A program made the position numbers and the translations under genes. DNA of 27,674 bases. Source: a virus. The stretch lies in IMG/VR virus record IMGVR_UViG_3300030116_000677, positions 1-27,674 of that record; one strand, written 5' to 3'. The notes beneath the pieces were generated by a model that was not told the origin of the DNA, did not search any database, and saw only the letters and a list, made by a program, of their open reading frames with translations. Shown here in pieces: positions 146 through 15,394 of the stretch (its first letter is position 1; each line of letters begins with the position of its first letter).

Positions 146-592
146 TTACAGGCTGTAAACTTTTTCTTTTTTCTCTTCAGGTATTACCTTTTGAAGATTG
201 ATGGTAAGCATCCCATCACTGAAAGAAGCATCATTTACAACCACGTCTTCGGCAAGAATGAAAGATTTTGAGAAGGGTCGTCTCGCTATGCCTTTATGTA
301 CGATCTTCTTATCGTCTTCCTCTTTAAGTTTCTTGCCGCTAATGGTTAGCTTGTCGGACTCTGTTTTAACTTCCAACTCTTCTTTGTTGAATCCAGCAGT
401 GGCTAACTCAATAGTGTACTTCCCATCTCCATCTTTGATTAAGTTGTGCGGCGGATAAGAACCTGCACTTGGGTATGGAACATTGTCAACTATGCGAACC
501 ATTTCATTAAATAGTTTATCATGACCAATCGCCCAGTTAGAAAAATTAGAAAAGAACGGATGGTTACTGTTTAGACTTGCATGTACACTCAT
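146..592 (-). CDS. hsp20: Small heat shock protein, Hsp20/IbpA family
   Basis: This 148-residue protein is the length of IbpA-type small heat shock proteins. A short N-terminal arm (HPFFSNFSNWAIGHDKLFNE) is followed by an alpha-crystallin domain from about residue 50. The domain holds GIARRPFSKSF, then LAEDVVVNDASFSDGMLTINL, and the protein ends with the IPE motif and a charged tail. Such proteins are ATP-independent holdases that keep unfolding proteins soluble. Small heat shock proteins occur in many marine phages, where they are thought to protect virion or host proteins during infection. The ATG at 590-592 follows AAGGAG by seven bases. It is expressed from its own consensus promoter (651-679) and ends at a terminator, so it looks like a separate transcription unit. 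Confidence 0.95.
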   Translation of the reverse strand: MSVHASLNSNHPFFSNFSNWAIGHDKLFNEMVRIVDNVPYPSAGSYPPHNLIKDGDGKYTIELATAGFNKEELEVKTESDKLTISGKKLKEEDDKKIVHKGIARRPFSKSFILAEDVVVNDASFSDGMLTINLQKVIPEEKKEKVYSL

Positions 593-7124: not shown

Positions 7125-7269
7125 TTTTTTCTTCCCACTCTTTGTAACCGTCTACGTATGCCTGATAGTGTGCATCACGTTTGTTGCGATCCCACCACCA
7201 CTCAGGCATAACATTATATCTTAATTGTTGTAAATTATTCCACTCTTGTTTGTTAAGCATTTCACTCAT
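7114..7269 (-). CDS. Small hypothetical protein, 51 residues
   Basis: This short frame runs from the ATG at 7267-7269 to a TAA at 7114-7116. It bridges the primase-helicase and nuclease genes, overlapping the former by eight bases and the latter by eleven. The protein is rich in aromatic and charged residues (MPEWWWDRNKRDAHYQAYVD, then YKEWEEKN) and has no membrane segment. Overlap on both sides is the same pattern as in neighbouring real genes. I do not recognise a family. Confidence 0.65.
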   Translation of the reverse strand: MSEMLNKQEWNNLQQLRYNVMPEWWWDRNKRDAHYQAYVDGYKEWEEKNDS

Positions 7270-8887
7270 CGTCGTCCTCCATGAATGGGTTAGCCACCTG
7301 AGTCATTCTACCAGTGTTAGAATCATAATGCAAGTAGCAAGCAATACCTGTCTCACCAGTGTACCTGTTCTTCAGGATACGGACGGTGGTGGTGTTAGCC
7401 TCTACCTCATCCTCTGCCTGTTGGTTGCGCTCAAGAGCAAGCACGGCATCAGACAGGTGTGCAATAGATGCAGACCCACGCAAGTGTGACAGAGTAATCT
7501 CACGGCCATCCTCATGCCCACGATCACCAGCGGGGCGGCGAAGATGTGATACAAGAAGCAAACCAATCTGTGTCTCCTCAACTAGAGAGCGTAGCTTGGT
7601 CATGAGGATGTCAATAGACTTACGCTCGTCACCATTGTCTTCTTGACCAGATACAAGAATAGAAAGGTGATCAAGAATAATCCACTTGGTGTTGAGAGCC
7701 TTTGCCATGTACCGCACACGGTTCAGAATCTCATCGTTGTCTATACTACCAAAGTGATCAAACACATAGAACCTGCCACTGCCAAGGGTCTTCTCTTGCC
7801 AATCGTCAAGCTGCTCTTGCGTGTACTGGTCACGAATCTCCTTAATGTATAGCCGTGCATTAGCTTCCACACTCATGAGATTGAACGCAGTCTGCTTGGT
7901 GTTCTCCTCCATTGCAAGGACGCCAATGTTCTCCTCAGTATTGTGCATCAGGTGGTACATTAGCTCACGCATGATACTGGACTTGCCCATGCCAGCGCCA
8001 GAGGTGAACGTAAGAAGTTCTCCGGTACGCATACCATAGGTCTTCTCGTTCAGCTTGGGCCAAGGATAAGGACAGGTCTGATTGTGCGTCTCTTCGTACA
8101 AGCTACGTCCAAGGTCAGCAAGGTTGATAATACCTGCCGGAGTGTAGGTCTGTGCGTTCCACCATGTCTGAACGAACTTCTCACGCTGACCAATCTTTAG
8201 ATACTCATTGGCATCCTTGAACTCAAGGTTCATGATCTTACACTTGTTAGGCTCAAACAGCTTTGCTACTGCCTGTTGTGCATCCCTACCTTGTTGATCA
8301 TTATCAAAGCATAGCACTACAGTATCAAACTTATTGAGATAATCTAATGCCTGACGGCAGTTCTTGAGTGCAGATTGTGCGCCATTCTTAATAGAAACCA
8401 CAGGCCACTTGGAACCAAGAAGCTGATAAGCACTCATGGCGTCAAGCTCACCCTCACATATGGTAATAAACTTACCAGCCTGACCAAAAATGTTCTGACC
8501 AAACAGCCCTGCCTCTGACAGATTACCCTCTGACCAGAACTGCTTGTCGCTGGTGCGGCGAAACTTCGTGCCAATATGATTGCTGTCTTTATCATAATAC
8601 TTATACATATGATCAGTAATCATATTACCTTCTTTGACAACTGATACACCATAACGCTTACAAGTTTCTGCGCTAATCTTACGATCAGGTATATCAGAAG
8701 TAATAAAGTTCTTAGGTTGCTTATTCATATTAACGATCTTCTTTGGTGCTTGTATATTTTGCATTTGATTTCCATTCTTGTATGGTCTGGCTTCGTCGCA
8801 ACTAAAACATTTAGTACCCCACTCGTAGTATGCCAGTGCATCAGATGATCCACAGTCAGGGCAGGGTTGGTGAGTTTTGTATTCCAT
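7262..8887 (-). CDS. T7 gp4-like primase-helicase
   Basis: This 541-residue bifunctional replication protein starts with a zinc ribbon (C9, C12, C27, C30). It continues with a TOPRIM primase core (ICEGELDAMSAY near 143-154, then LCFDNDQQGRD) and ends with a DnaB/RecA-type helicase. The helicase has Walker A SGAGMGKSS (near 295-303), Walker B WIILDHLSIL, and the SHLRRP and LRGSASI elements typical of hexameric helicases. The acidic end EDDDE resembles the T7 gp4 tail that binds the polymerase. It is close in size to T7 gp4 (566). The protein unwinds DNA and lays down primers at the fork. TCC-rich sequence on the plus strand gives a GGAGGA site upstream of the ATG, just beyond a large hairpin. 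Confidence 0.96.
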   Translation of the reverse strand: MEYKTHQPCPDCGSSDALAYYEWGTKCFSCDEARPYKNGNQMQNIQAPKKIVNMNKQPKNFITSDIPDRKISAETCKRYGVSVVKEGNMITDHMYKYYDKDSNHIGTKFRRTSDKQFWSEGNLSEAGLFGQNIFGQAGKFITICEGELDAMSAYQLLGSKWPVVSIKNGAQSALKNCRQALDYLNKFDTVVLCFDNDQQGRDAQQAVAKLFEPNKCKIMNLEFKDANEYLKIGQREKFVQTWWNAQTYTPAGIINLADLGRSLYEETHNQTCPYPWPKLNEKTYGMRTGELLTFTSGAGMGKSSIMRELMYHLMHNTEENIGVLAMEENTKQTAFNLMSVEANARLYIKEIRDQYTQEQLDDWQEKTLGSGRFYVFDHFGSIDNDEILNRVRYMAKALNTKWIILDHLSILVSGQEDNGDERKSIDILMTKLRSLVEETQIGLLLVSHLRRPAGDRGHEDGREITLSHLRGSASIAHLSDAVLALERNQQAEDEVEANTTTVRILKNRYTGETGIACYLHYDSNTGRMTQVANPFMEDDDE

Positions 8888-8899
8888 AAGTCCTCCATA

Positions 8900-8951
8900 T
8901 TAATTGAGCCTTAGTAGTTTCGTAGAAACTTCACTACTAAGACTCAATTAA
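8900..8951 (-). promoter_or_regulatory. Long stem-loop in front of primase-helicase
   Basis: The minus strand forms a 19-bp stem, TTAATTGAG-T-CTTAGTAGT against ACTACTAAG-G-CTCAATTAA, with one G-U pair. A short TTTC/GAAA stem sits inside. The hairpin starts two bases after the stop codon at 8953 and ends just before the ribosome binding site. It lacks a U-run, so it is more likely an RNA processing, stability or translational site than a terminator. Confidence 0.65.
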
Positions 8952-11308: not shown

Positions 11309-11337
11309 ATTATATCATATAGTGCGTTCATTTGTAA
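11309..11337 (-). promoter_or_regulatory. Weak promoter candidate before the 11073-11300 gene
   Basis: TATAAT (11314-11309) is preceded 17 bases upstream by TTACAA. The -10 is perfect, but the -35 matches only half of the consensus, so activity is uncertain. It overlaps the end of the SET-domain gene. Confidence 0.4.
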
Positions 11338-11648
11338 TAATCCAATGTTAGTTCTTCACCTTCTTCAATATTTTGAAGAGTGAACAGGTTATAAATCTGG
11401 CAGTCGTCCCAATCATGAACTTGACGTAGCTCACAGTTAGGCTCCTCTGTATGGTTTAAATATCCACCAATGGGAGTTCTGATTAGGCCATAGAACATGG
11501 GTACGTTAATATGTGTTGCGCCTAAGTCTGTCTCTGCTGGAATGTCCATCGTGGCGAACACACCTAGCCCCTCTATATCACTTTCTCGTATTGTTATCTC
11601 CTCCGGTAAGGGCTTGTAATAAAAAGGATTGTAATCAGGTAGCATCAT
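11328..11648 (-). CDS. SET-domain protein (putative lysine methyltransferase)
   Basis: The protein has 106 residues from the ATG at 11646-11648, with GAGGA upstream; a start 27 bases further up is less likely. It shows the SET core: EGLGVFATMDIPAETDLG (cofactor-binding GxG and first strand), GGYLNHTEEPNCELRQ (equivalent to the NHSxxPNC pseudoknot motif), FTLQNIEEGEELTLDYYK (ending in the GEELTxDY motif with the catalytic Tyr). SET enzymes move a methyl group from S-adenosylmethionine to a protein lysine. At this size it is a bare domain, with no post-SET zinc site visible. The target in a bacterium or phage is unknown; ribosomal, DNA-binding or virion proteins are possible. Confidence 0.85.
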   Translation of the reverse strand: MMLPDYNPFYYKPLPEEITIRESDIEGLGVFATMDIPAETDLGATHINVPMFYGLIRTPIGGYLNHTEEPNCELRQVHDWDDCQIYNLFTLQNIEEGEELTLDYYK

Positions 11649-11802
11649 TTTCAATGTCCTCAAAGAATGGATCAAATACTAGTAAAGTATGCTCATATTC
11701 TTTAGCAGCCTTCTTAGTTTTGTGGTAGGTGGTTTGCCCATCAGAGTGTTGAGCCTTCCACTTTCTACCTTCTTTAGAAATAATTCTAAAACCTTCAGTC
11801 AT
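11635..11802 (-). CDS. Small hypothetical protein, 55 residues
   Basis: The frame from the ATG at 11800-11802, with AAAGGAA upstream, encodes MTEGFRIISKEGRKWKAQHS followed by DGQTTYHKTKKAAKEYE. A strand-strand-helix pattern with a basic N-terminal half suggests a small nucleic-acid-binding fold. It overlaps the SET gene start by 14 bases and its upstream neighbour by eight. The function is unknown. Confidence 0.65.
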   Translation of the reverse strand: MTEGFRIISKEGRKWKAQHSDGQTTYHKTKKAAKEYEHTLLVFDPFFEDIENDAT

Positions 11803-12678: not shown

Positions 12679-12707
12679 ACTATAGCATATAGCTATATTT
12701 AAGTCAA
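12679..12707 (-). promoter_or_regulatory. Sigma70-type promoter for the small nuclease operon
   Basis: The minus strand reads TTGACT (12707-12702), a 17-base spacer, then TATAGT (12684-12679), a 10-of-12 match. It overlaps the last codons of the Gp88-like gene and leads into the nuclease gene. Confidence 0.8.
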
Positions 12708-13372
12708 CCTGCTATTGCTGACGCTTTCTTTTTACCTGTACCATGAGCAGGGAAGCCTACGATTACTTTACGGTCACGCTTCTCGCACAACATGCAATCC
12801 GAACATGATACATTATCTTTGTAGGTAGCAGGACATACCACAACCTTCCTGCCCTTTGGCGTCACTGTATTGGTTGTCTGTTCAATAGGTAACACAGTTG
12901 CCACAGGAGCTATGTCTAAATCGCATAGCTCGTCAGCATGATCTAAATTGTTGGCAGATACATTAACAGTGAAGCCTAAGTTATTCATACTATTGACTAT
13001 TATGGCATTCTGGAAGTTGTCCAATACGTCATAATGTGTGTATGTAAACCCACGTTTGCCTTCGTTAGCACGAGCAAGCTCCACACACTTGGTGCTGTCA
13101 AGGTCTTGTGTGTCACCCGGCAAGTCACCAGCTTGATTGTGTCGCCACTTGCTACCAGCAGGTAGGTCTCTGATCTTGCCAAGAAATGTAGGCCAATCGT
13201 CGCCACGCTCACCTTTGGTGACCTTGAGCCAGTGTAGTTTCAACGGCCCACTCTCCGCATAGCATCCATTATCTCTGAATGGACATGCGCTAGGACATGT
13301 TGTCGCAGTACTGGTAGTAACTGCCATTGGTCCTACCTTGCTGTTCTTTGATTTAGGTGTAATGTGATACAT
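12704..13372 (-). CDS. Gp88-like cysteine-rich phage protein
   Basis: The protein has 222 residues from the ATG at 13370-13372, with GGAGAG five bases upstream. It matches the mycobacteriophage Gp88-type family as I know it. Its motifs are NSKVGPMAVTTSTATTCPSA, CPFRDNGCYAESGPLKLHW, GERGDDWPTF, SKWRHNQAGDLPGD, RGFTYTHYD and NVSANNLDHAD, then VCPATYKDNVSCSDCMLCEK and VGFPAHGTGKK. Two clusters of cysteines (three near 27-38, four or more near 190-205) suggest a bound Fe-S cluster or zinc. The family is spread through phages and plasmids, and I know of no established function. A UACG-capped hairpin lies just upstream. Confidence 0.85.
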   Translation of the reverse strand: MYHITPKSKNSKVGPMAVTTSTATTCPSACPFRDNGCYAESGPLKLHWLKVTKGERGDDWPTFLGKIRDLPAGSKWRHNQAGDLPGDTQDLDSTKCVELARANEGKRGFTYTHYDVLDNFQNAIIVNSMNNLGFTVNVSANNLDHADELCDLDIAPVATVLPIEQTTNTVTPKGRKVVVCPATYKDNVSCSDCMLCEKRDRKVIVGFPAHGTGKKKASAIAG

Positions 13373-13397
13373 GGTTTCTCTCCATAGTTTGCACATA

Positions 13398-13723: not shown

Positions 13724-13888
13724 TTAAACAGTTTCAGGTAGTTTGTCAGCGTTGCGAATGATCTTGAAGTTCCCGTTAGGATGCAATACCCTAATTGGCA
13801 CACCAGAATCAGATGCTTTCTGGAATAGTTCCTTGCCCTTGGCAAGTTCTACCCACTCGTTTGCTACGAAAGTTTGCATTGTCGCCAT
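13724..13888 (-). CDS. Small hypothetical protein, 54 residues
   Basis: The ATG at 13886-13888 has AGGAG seven bases upstream, so the longer open frame is not used. MATMQTFVANEWVELAKGKE is followed by a short VPIRVLHPNGNFKIIRNADK strand pair. It is compact and soluble, with no recognised family. Confidence 0.7.
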   Translation of the reverse strand: MATMQTFVANEWVELAKGKELFQKASDSGVPIRVLHPNGNFKIIRNADKLPETV

Positions 13889-13939
13889 GTAAATCTCCTT
13901 TGGTTGGCGGTTGGTGAAGGTTATTTTAGTTACCGCTGG

Positions 13940-13961
13940 ACCCTTCATAAATATTCAGGGT
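13940..13961. repeat. Palindrome, member 1 of an ACCCT...AGGGT family
   Basis: ACCCT (13940-13944) and AGGGT (13957-13961) flank a 12-base centre beginning TCATAAA. It lies in the 91-base gap upstream of the 13724-13888 gene. The arms and first centre bases resemble the palindromes at 14890-14923 and 15139-15188. Confidence 0.5.
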
Positions 13962-13979
13962 ACAGCTCAGAGTAACTAA

Positions 13980-14144
13980 TTAGTCGCACCCCTCTGTAAT
14001 CCACGCACATAATGCAATGAATACGAAGGGCAATGCCCAAAGCATTGGGAATGTATCCCAACCCTTGAACATGAAACCATACATCCCGACTAACACTGCC
14101 GGAAACGTCAATAATAAAGATACGTTTCTAATTTTCTCAAACAT
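13980..14144 (-). CDS. Small two-helix membrane protein, 54 residues
   Basis: The start MFEKIRNV at the ATG at 14142-14144 has AGGAGG upstream and a TAATG overlap with the previous gene. Two hydrophobic segments follow: VSLLLTFPAVLVGMYGFMF and FPMLWALPFVFIALCAWIT, separated by KGWDT. Size and topology are compatible with a small holin or another inner-membrane phage protein. The lysin lies about 4 kb downstream on the same strand, so a lysis role is only a guess. Confidence 0.75.
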   Translation of the reverse strand: MFEKIRNVSLLLTFPAVLVGMYGFMFKGWDTFPMLWALPFVFIALCAWITEGCD

Positions 14145-14419
14145 TAGTCTTCCTCCTTTTTGCAAGTCCAAGCCCATTCTGGGGCTTCGCCAAAGTCTTC
14201 AACTTCTTTGCCTTCGGCAAAAGCCAGCAGATCAGCCGCTACTTGTCTGGCTTGCTCTCTAGTCAGTGAAACTGACGTAAAAAATTTGTCTGCTGTTGTC
14301 ACTGGATTTTTAACAGGGTCTCTACGCATAGAGACTTGAACGCATGTGCCTCTGAAGTCTCCGCCCCAAAAGCGGGTCATGTCAACTCCGTCTGCACGGG
14401 ATTTTATATCAGTAGCCAT
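14144..14419 (-). CDS. Hypothetical protein, 91 residues
   Basis: GGAGGAG lies just before the ATG. The sequence holds an early segment TRFWGGDFRGTCVQVSMRRD and a helix SLTREQARQVAADLLAFAEG, then an acidic, Trp-rich end. It resembles small phage proteins with a beta sheet followed by one amphipathic helix. The function is unknown. Confidence 0.75.
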   Translation of the reverse strand: MATDIKSRADGVDMTRFWGGDFRGTCVQVSMRRDPVKNPVTTADKFFTSVSLTREQARQVAADLLAFAEGKEVEDFGEAPEWAWTCKKEED

Positions 14420-14584
14420 TTACTCCTCCATTTTTTCAATCGCTGATAGTAACTTGACGGCGTGAAGTTTGAATTGTTCCTCACTTTGAAAAAAACCACA
14501 TATTGTCAGGTGATCTTGATCTTGGTTTGCTGGATGATTTTGCAAAGCAACTAAGTTGTATTTATCAAGCATTTCTCTGAGCAT
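14420..14584 (-). CDS. Small hypothetical protein, 54 residues
   Basis: The ATG at 14582-14584 is preceded by GGAGGTTATA, a strong ribosome binding site. The protein reads MLREMLDKYNLVALQNHPAN, then DHLTICGFFQSEEQFKLHAV, a strand-helix pattern. The stop codon lies just before the start codon of the next gene. No family is recognised. Confidence 0.65.
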   Translation of the reverse strand: MLREMLDKYNLVALQNHPANQDQDHLTICGFFQSEEQFKLHAVKLLSAIEKMEE

Positions 14585-14596
14585 TATAACCTCCGG

Positions 14597-14680
14597 TTAT
14601 TTGGATAAAAGATAAAACATAGCCCATACTATGACATAGCCAAAGAGACCAACCATAGCACCCGTGAGAGGCTCAAACAT
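14597..14680 (-). CDS. Membrane mini-protein, 27 residues
   Basis: A short frame with GGAG six bases before its ATG (14678-14680) encodes MFEPLTGAMVGLFGYVIVWA and ends MFYLLSK. It is almost entirely one transmembrane helix. The good ribosome binding site and fit in the operon support it, but it is too short for a firm call. It could be a holin or antiholin component. Confidence 0.5.
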   Translation of the reverse strand: MFEPLTGAMVGLFGYVIVWAMFYLLSK

Positions 14681-14692
14681 ATTAATCTCCGA

Positions 14693-14863
14693 TTAAAGGT
14701 TGCTGATAACTTCAATGGTGGCTTCGTCCTCGTCCAACGTAGCAATCCACCAGCCGTGTTGGTCATGTACGTCTACAGCCCCGCCGTTCACCGAAGTGTG
14801 AACTTGGAAGCTACCGTCAAGGAACTGGTCAATCTCTGATTGAAGGATGGTAATGTTTGTCAT
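14693..14863 (-). CDS. First leftward early gene, 56-residue hypothetical protein
   Basis: The ATG at 14861-14863 has AAGGAG seven bases upstream; the longer frame would run through the promoter and operator region and is rejected. The sequence reads MTNITILQSEIDQFLDGSFQ, then VHTSVNGGAVDVHDQHGWWI, and ends DEDEATIEVISNL. It is small, acidic and beta-rich. As the promoter-proximal early gene it is a candidate host-takeover protein, but the sequence shows no known domain. Confidence 0.7.
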   Translation of the reverse strand: MTNITILQSEIDQFLDGSFQVHTSVNGGAVDVHDQHGWWIATLDEDEATIEVISNL

Positions 14864-14889
14864 GGTCAATCTCCTTAGTTTAATTAATA

Positions 14890-14923
14890 CCCTATAGAAC
14901 TCATAAGAGTTCGTTCTATAGGG
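14890..14923. repeat. Palindrome, member 2, between early promoter and first gene
   Basis: CCCTATAGAAC (14890-14900) and GTTCTATAGGG (14913-14923) are perfect inverted 11-base arms around a 12-base centre starting TCATAAG. A second, nested hairpin GAACTC-ATAA-GAGTTC is also possible, so two folds compete. It lies directly after the leftward promoter, a position suited to an operator or attenuator. Confidence 0.7.
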
Positions 14924-14924
14924 G

Positions 14925-14954
14925 ATTATTAACCTCATCATTTGTTGTTGTCAA
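14925..14954 (-). promoter_or_regulatory. Leftward early promoter
   Basis: The minus strand reads TTGACA (14954-14949), then 17 bases to TAATAA or 18 to AATAAT. The -35 is perfect and the -10 is weaker. It faces the whole leftward arm and is followed at once by a palindrome. Confidence 0.6.
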
Positions 14955-15138
14955 GCCTCGTCAAATGCCACAGCATTTCATCGTATGCAAGTCTGCATTG
15001 CATGGTCTGCATAGCGTGGAAAAGCTCCGATTTGTCAAGGGGTTAGCTAAGTTTCTAGAACTACTACGAAGTAGTAAAAGTCCTATGAAACAACATCCAG
15101 AGGATGAATTGTCAAGGATTGGCAGCAAAATCTCTTTA

Positions 15139-15188
15139 TAACTACCGTATACCCTTCGTAAGAACTAGGGTATACTCAAGAGTAGTTA
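15139..15188. repeat. Large interrupted palindrome, member 3
   Basis: The inner arms GTATACCCT (15147-15155) and AGGGTATAC (15167-15175) are perfect 9-base inverted repeats around TCGTAAGAACT. The outer arms TAACTAC (15139-15145) and GTAGTTA (15182-15188) extend it. It shares ACCCT, a TC-R-TAA centre and AGGGT with member 1. Confidence 0.7.
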
Positions 15189-15394
15189 TGGATACCTTGG
15201 ATTTGGAGGGTCACTGGCAACGAAGTTGCTACACGGGGGTAGGCACAAATGCGTACACGCATGTATATATATAAACAACACCCCCGCATACTTAGAAAAA
15301 TCTATGGACCTCTCATCACTGTTGCATAAATACCACGAGGCGGTACTAATTAGCTACTTAATAGTATTTTTTTATTATTTTTTTAATATCTCTA

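What the first reader, a model, noticed from the sequence alone, without database searches (positions are those of the whole stretch)
13940..15188. Three related palindromes around the divergent control region
Inverted repeats at 13940-13961, 14890-14923 and 15139-15188 share ACCCT arms, AGGG(T/G) partners and a centre starting TC-R-TAA, with centres of 11-12 bases. Member 2 lies right after the leftward promoter, and member 3 lies in the gap between the two arms. Repeats of one design at control points suggest binding sites for one regulator or a common RNA element. The regulator could be one of the tiny early proteins.
Basis: seen in the sequence. Interest (0 to 1): 0.6.

Follow-up and report, generated by a model that had tools for sequence, protein, structure and literature searches.

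The report
Conserved RNA hairpin between phage genes
The three palindromes are copies of a previously uncatalogued RNA hairpin that marine phages place in front of their early genes, in the messenger RNA, so they probably mark where the message is cut or controlled; what reads them is not known.

Summary
Anatomy: a stem of about 19 bp, usually broken once by a small mismatch or bulge, capped by GA-[RY]-N3-5-[RY]-GA (drawn as tandem G-A mismatches, two covarying pairs and a 3-5 nt loop). Stem sequences differ freely but stay paired; the cap is kept. About 90-100 distinct copies were found in over 50 uncultured phage contigs, up to 7 per contig. All 87 that could be tested lie on the strand opposite the terminase gene, usually between a stop codon and the next gene's ribosome-binding site. 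No Rfam family matches. Cultured roseophage CRP-345 carries a variant, and HMO-2011 a doubtful one. Most likely it is an intercistronic processing or stability signal comparable to T7's RNase III sites (0.45), read by a host nuclease, since the phages tested lack detectable RNase III, dsRBD, L7Ae and T7-type RNA polymerase. A binding site for an unknown regulator is the main rival.

The parts
13926..13979 (-). Member 1: hairpin, cap GAAUAUUUAUGA, upper stem CUGUACCCU/AGGGUCCAG (one mismatch), bulge UCUGAG against CG, lower stem UUAGUUAC/GUAACUAA; lies before the RBS of the 54-aa gene at 13724-13888
   Evidence: 31.2 bits, E 5e-5; orthologous hairpins before the same gene in about 13 other contigs
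14882..14934 (-). Member 2: hairpin, cap GAACUCUUAUGA, upper stem CCCUAUAGAAC/GUUCUAUAGGG, lower stem GGUUAAUA/UAUUAAUU; lies before the RBS of the 56-aa gene at 14693-14863
   Evidence: 36.1 bits, E 4e-6; orthologs
15138..15189 (-). Member 3: hairpin, cap AGUUCUUACGA, upper stem GUAUACCCU/AGGGUAUAC, 5-nt bulge CUUGA, lower stem AUAACUACU/GGUAGUUAU; in the gap between the two arms, at the head of the leftward region
   Evidence: (34.9 bits, E 7e-6)
8900..8951 (-).
   Evidence: (22.5 bits, E 0.006); same position in L127, L132, L139, L142 and others
13724..13888 (-). 54-aa gene downstream of member 1 (no Pfam or PHROG match)
14693..14863 (-). 56-aa gene downstream of member 2 (no Pfam or PHROG match)
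7262..8887 (-). DNA primase/helicase gene downstream of member 4
   Evidence: phrog_239, E 2e-180

Best explanation
The element is a cis-acting RNA hairpin in the early messenger RNAs. Shown here by sequence comparison: the hairpin lies in gene sense, is confined to the early arm, sits between the stop codon of one gene and the ribosome-binding site of the next (or in an early leader), has a stem kept near 19 bp despite free sequence change, and has a conserved GA-RY-loop-RY-GA cap. Inferred: after a long polycistronic early transcript is made, a nuclease docks on the cap and cuts in or below the stem, often near the mid-stem mismatch or bulge. That would separate the message into shorter units with a fresh 5' end close to the next ribosome-binding site and a protective hairpin on the upstream piece. 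The nuclease is most likely the host's RNase III, because the phages tested encode no detectable RNase III or dsRNA-binding domain. The arrangement is like that of the T7 RNase III sites, but with a fixed cap that T7 sites lack.
For: An unbiased hairpin scan of all loci recovers the capped loops as the commonest (GAGTATCTTACGA 34, GAGTTCTTACGA 12); 114 hits against 0-4 for 14 control hexamers. Paired length is 17-21 bp in 73 of 93 elements against 33% in flank-swapped controls. Most lie 9-23 nt after a stop codon and about 30 nt before a start codon with a Shine-Dalgarno sequence; 82 of 102 have such a start within 100 nt in gene sense against 15 on the other strand. 87 of 87 lie opposite the terminase strand, 33 of 33 on the primase strand, 17 of 17 on the DNA polymerase strand. 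In loci fetched by a neighbouring gene, not by the hairpin, 14 of 14 orthologs of the member-2 gene have an upstream hairpin, 11 with the GA cap, with about eight different arm sequences. G-U 20 versus A-C 4. T7 RNase III sites in NC_001604 are likewise hairpins just before early and late genes (site positions from own knowledge).
Against: No cleavage has been shown, and no transcript data were available. RNase III has no known need for a GA-RY...RY-GA cap, so the conservation of the cap is unexplained by ordinary RNase III action. T7 sites carry their conserved bases in the middle of the stem, not at the tip. Three of 14 member-2 orthologs keep the hairpin but have a different cap (GTAACGAAGTGT, GTACGAAGTAG). 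Some more distant primase orthologs lack the hairpin altogether.
Confidence: 0.45

Rival explanations
1. Binding site for a trans-acting RNA-binding protein (phage-encoded or host) that recognises the cap and controls translation or transcription elongation of all early units together, in the manner of lambda boxB/N or phage translational operators.
For: The cap is conserved more than the stem and sits on otherwise unrelated stems in phages that share little else; placement just before ribosome-binding sites.
Against: No phage gene was found that tracks the element; L7Ae and dsRBD families are absent from 13 records tested. Up to 7 copies per contig are more than a nut-type site would need. 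No boxA-like sequence was seen by eye near the window copies.
Confidence: 0.33
2. A passive mRNA stabiliser or spacer: the hairpin blocks exonucleases and keeps the ribosome-binding site free of structure.
For: Intercistronic position and steady stem length.
Against: A passive barrier would not need a conserved cap with covarying pairs.
Confidence: 0.12
3. A double-stranded DNA operator (palindromic repressor or activator site).
For: Palindromes at control points; a promoter-like TTGACA-18-AATAAT lies at member 2.
Against: Arm sequences change completely while pairing is kept; wobble pairs lean to gene sense; the cap is not palindromic; strand bias is complete.
Confidence: 0.04
4. Promoters for a phage single-subunit RNA polymerase, as duplex or as a DNA hairpin of the N4 kind.
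For: A superficial likeness of TTACGATACTATAGGG to T7 promoters, seen while reading.
Against: No PF00940 polymerase in 13 records while T7 rings at 1e-109; the likeness disappears in copies with other arms.
Confidence: 0.02
5. Transcription terminators or attenuators.
For: Strong hairpins between genes.
Against: No U-tract follows; A+T-rich arm, Shine-Dalgarno and start codon follow instead.
Confidence: 0.04

Closest known systems
RNase III processing sites of bacteriophage T7 (R0.3, R0.5, R1, R1.1, R1.3 and later ones)
   Same: Hairpins with a mid-stem interruption, several per genome, each just before a gene's ribosome-binding site; stems of similar total length.
   Different: T7 apical loops vary and the kept bases (ACUCAAGG / CCUUUAYGA) are in the mid-stem loop; here the tip is kept. 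The covariance model finds nothing in T7. Cleavage is unproven here.
Substrates of yeast RNase III Rnt1 (AGNN-capped hairpins)
   Same: A fixed cap on a variable stem, with cleavage about 14-16 nt from the loop (PMC13183374); here the stem break lies at a comparable distance in many copies.
   Different: Different cap, different domain of life; an analogy only.
Lambda boxB / nut sites (from own knowledge)
   Same: Small capped hairpin in early phage RNA; the lambda loop also begins and ends with purines.
   Different: boxB has a 5-nt loop and a 5-bp stem and is paired with boxA; here the stem is about 19 bp and copies stand before many genes.
Kink-loop (L7Ae-bound GA...GA loop; from own knowledge)
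   Same: stem-GA-loop-GA-stem layout.
   Different: Here two covarying pairs close the inner loop and there is no three-base bulge; L7Ae is absent from the phages tested.

Membership tests
T7-type RNase III processing site | Hairpin directly before phage genes in the transcribed strand | tested here: met
T7-type RNase III processing site | About two turns of stem with an internal loop or bulge | tested here: met
   17-21 bp in 73 of 93; second helix after a small internal loop in most
T7-type RNase III processing site | T7 conserved internal-loop sequence (ACUCAAGG / CCUUUAYGA) | tested here: not met
   T7 sites read; in the new element UUAYGA-like letters are in the cap, not mid-stem
T7-type RNase III processing site | Cleavage by RNase III | not testable with these tools
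   no biochemical or transcript data
Any Rfam family | Match to a covariance model | tested here: not met
   no match at gathering score; the relaxed search of 13900-15250 gave nothing at the hairpins
T7-like RNA polymerase promoter | Phage encodes a single-subunit RNA polymerase | tested here: not met
   absent from 13 records, T7 positive control; most records may be incomplete
Kink-turn/kink-loop bound by L7Ae | L7Ae-family protein in the phage | tested here: not met
   (a host homologue is not excluded)
DNA operator palindrome | Conserved half-site sequence | tested here: not met
   arm pairs vary at all 11 positions in alignment A1

The most novel reading that the evidence does not exclude
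An RNA-tagged early regulon: unrelated marine phage groups, perhaps infecting more than one bacterial phylum, mark many early transcription units with the same hairpin cap, which is read by one unknown factor to switch or process the whole early programme.
Probability: 0.3. Interest if true: 0.75.

Novelty: new variant of a known kind. Interest (0 to 1): 0.6.

Why it matters
HMO-2011-type phages, to which one of the two element-bearing groups belongs, are described as dominant and broadly distributed in the sea (PMC9038755), yet little is known about how their early genes are controlled. A repeated, recognisable RNA signal gives a handle on early operon structure in uncultured phages, can be searched for with a covariance model, and can be tested in cultured roseophage CRP-345. 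If a loop-reading nuclease or regulator is behind it, that would be a new RNA-protein recognition in phage biology.

Tried and rejected
Short BLAST searches of the hairpin against 50,697 cultured phage records gave only chance-level hits. One genome scan with AGTAGAGTN{1,2}CTTACGATACT found no bacterial or archaeal contig; it tests only that exact arm form. A first orientation guess from a few G-T pairs on the + strand was reversed by context and a full count. Phage RNase III, dsRBD, L7Ae and T7-type RNA polymerase were looked for and not found. MAFFT alignment of mixed-length caps (A2) was misaligned and not used. A permissive arm-extension score did not stop at stem ends and was replaced. 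Many hits of the first pattern scan are an unrelated recurring sequence (ctactcaaagagACCCTTCATAAATTTAATAGGGT) and were set aside. Full cultured records searched with the model gave nothing significant, so CRP-345 and HMO-2011 rest on direct reading.

Full report
What was checked. The window belongs to a 53,229-base uncultured phage record with leftward replication genes (primase/helicase, DNA polymerase, ribonucleotide reductase) and rightward terminase, portal and head genes. The three inverted repeats are present and exceed shuffled sequence.

The element. Read on the minus strand, the sense of the neighbouring genes, the loops are GAAUAUUUAUGA, GAACUCUUAUGA and AGUUCUUACGA. A scan of IMG/VR for one arm form, filtered by pairing, showed the same centre on different stems in other phages. 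Further scans returned 13 contigs, 63 stretches and 28 loci fetched by the neighbouring gene 12704-13396. A scan for hairpins ending in TTAYGA gave 114 hits against 0-4 for 14 control hexamers. A scan that did not specify the loop still returned these caps as the commonest.

Structure. A 64-sequence alignment (A1) has 96% of pair cells paired, with double-sided changes at all 11 arm pairs and at one of the two inner cap pairs. The arms had been selected for pairing, so that count is partly circular. Non-circular support comes from orthologs: in loci fetched through a gene, all 14 orthologs of the member-2 gene have an upstream hairpin, 11 with the GA cap, on several different arm sequences. 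Orthologs of the member-1 and member-2 genes across contigs show the same, although those were found through the hairpin. Cap variants give inner pairs GU/AC (96), AC/GU (8), GU/GC (8), AU/AU (2), AU/GU (1) and three copies with a mismatch there, member 2 of this window among them. This fits GA-RY-loop-RY-GA; the sheared geometry of the G-A pairs is inferred. In gene sense G-U outnumbers A-C 20 to 4 (related copies are not independent, and the scan gave G-T half credit). Paired length clusters at 17-21 bp (73 of 93; control 33%).

Context. Most copies follow a stop codon by 9-23 nt and precede a Shine-Dalgarno start by about 30 nt. Starts are found in gene sense for 82 of 102 and on the other strand for 15. 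All 87 copies on contigs with a terminase match lie on the opposite strand to it; all 33 and 17 with primase and polymerase matches lie on the same strand. In this phage the whole-record model search found matches only in the leftward arm, and a full search of the window added a fourth copy before the primase gene. Close primase orthologs keep it; distant ones do not. Copies per record range up to 7. L124 has six copies, four of them in front of successive small genes. Member 3 stands at the head of the leftward region; no convincing gene lies between it and member 2.

Distribution. The relatives fall into at least two phage groups, one like the window and one like CRP-345/HMO-2011, plus contigs such as L013/L018 whose primase is nearest, at 30-35% identity, to fecal, sewage and Cellulophaga phages; a Bacteroidota host for these is a guess. 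Among cultured phages, CRP-345 has a perfect 14-bp hairpin with loop GAATATTTGTGA between its second and third genes. HMO-2011 has a 9-bp hairpin with GATACTTTAGTGA between its first two early genes, one base off the cap rule, so it is provisional. The model itself scores neither as significant. CRP-1, CRP-2 and others showed none in the parts read. A single genome-collection scan with one exact arm form found no bacterial or archaeal contig.

Mechanism. The position, strand, number and stem length resemble T7's RNase III sites, whose R1.1 RNA is a standard RNase III substrate (PMC6121014). A fixed cap that guides an RNase III is known in yeast Rnt1 (PMC13183374). Neither comparison proves cleavage here. 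The phages lack detectable RNase III, dsRBD, L7Ae and T7-type polymerase, so a nuclease would have to come from the host, or be of an unrecognised kind. The conserved cap is the strongest argument for a specific reader, which keeps the regulator model close behind.

Novelty. No Rfam family matches, and literature searches in the open-access library found no description; that library lacks most subscription papers. The element is best called a new variant of phage intercistronic control hairpins.

Noticed in passing
window 14925-14954 (-): A good sigma-70-like promoter (TTGACA-18-AATAAT) overlaps the outer arm of member 2; TTGACA at about this spacing is kept in L092 and L124 but the second hexamer is not.
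   Followed up: partly
L130, L143, L144 upstream of the member-2 gene ortholog: Same-position hairpins with another cap (GTAACGAAGTGT, GTACGAAGTAG), suggesting that caps can be swapped.
   Followed up: partly
L209 2530-2832 (record G000 29530-29832, +): Very basic 100-aa protein (DUF6321, PF19846) shared by nine of the hairpin-bearing records compared and by HTVC115P; nucleic-acid binding is plausible, no link to the element shown.
   Followed up: partly
window 14142-14241 (-): Sub-threshold match to the Rfam motif freshwater-2 (29.1 bits against a 49.9 cut-off).
   Followed up: no
window 11328-11675 (-): Small early protein with a SET domain match (PF00856, E 1e-10).
   Followed up: no
window 146-592 (-): Phage HSP20-type small heat-shock protein.
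   Followed up: no
L116 7128-9494 and L027 1846-4109 (oriented strand): Related hairpins whose tip is UCAUUUAUGA-like, with Watson-Crick pairs in place of the G-A mismatches; resembles the T7 internal-loop letters CUCA...UUUAUGA.
   Followed up: partly
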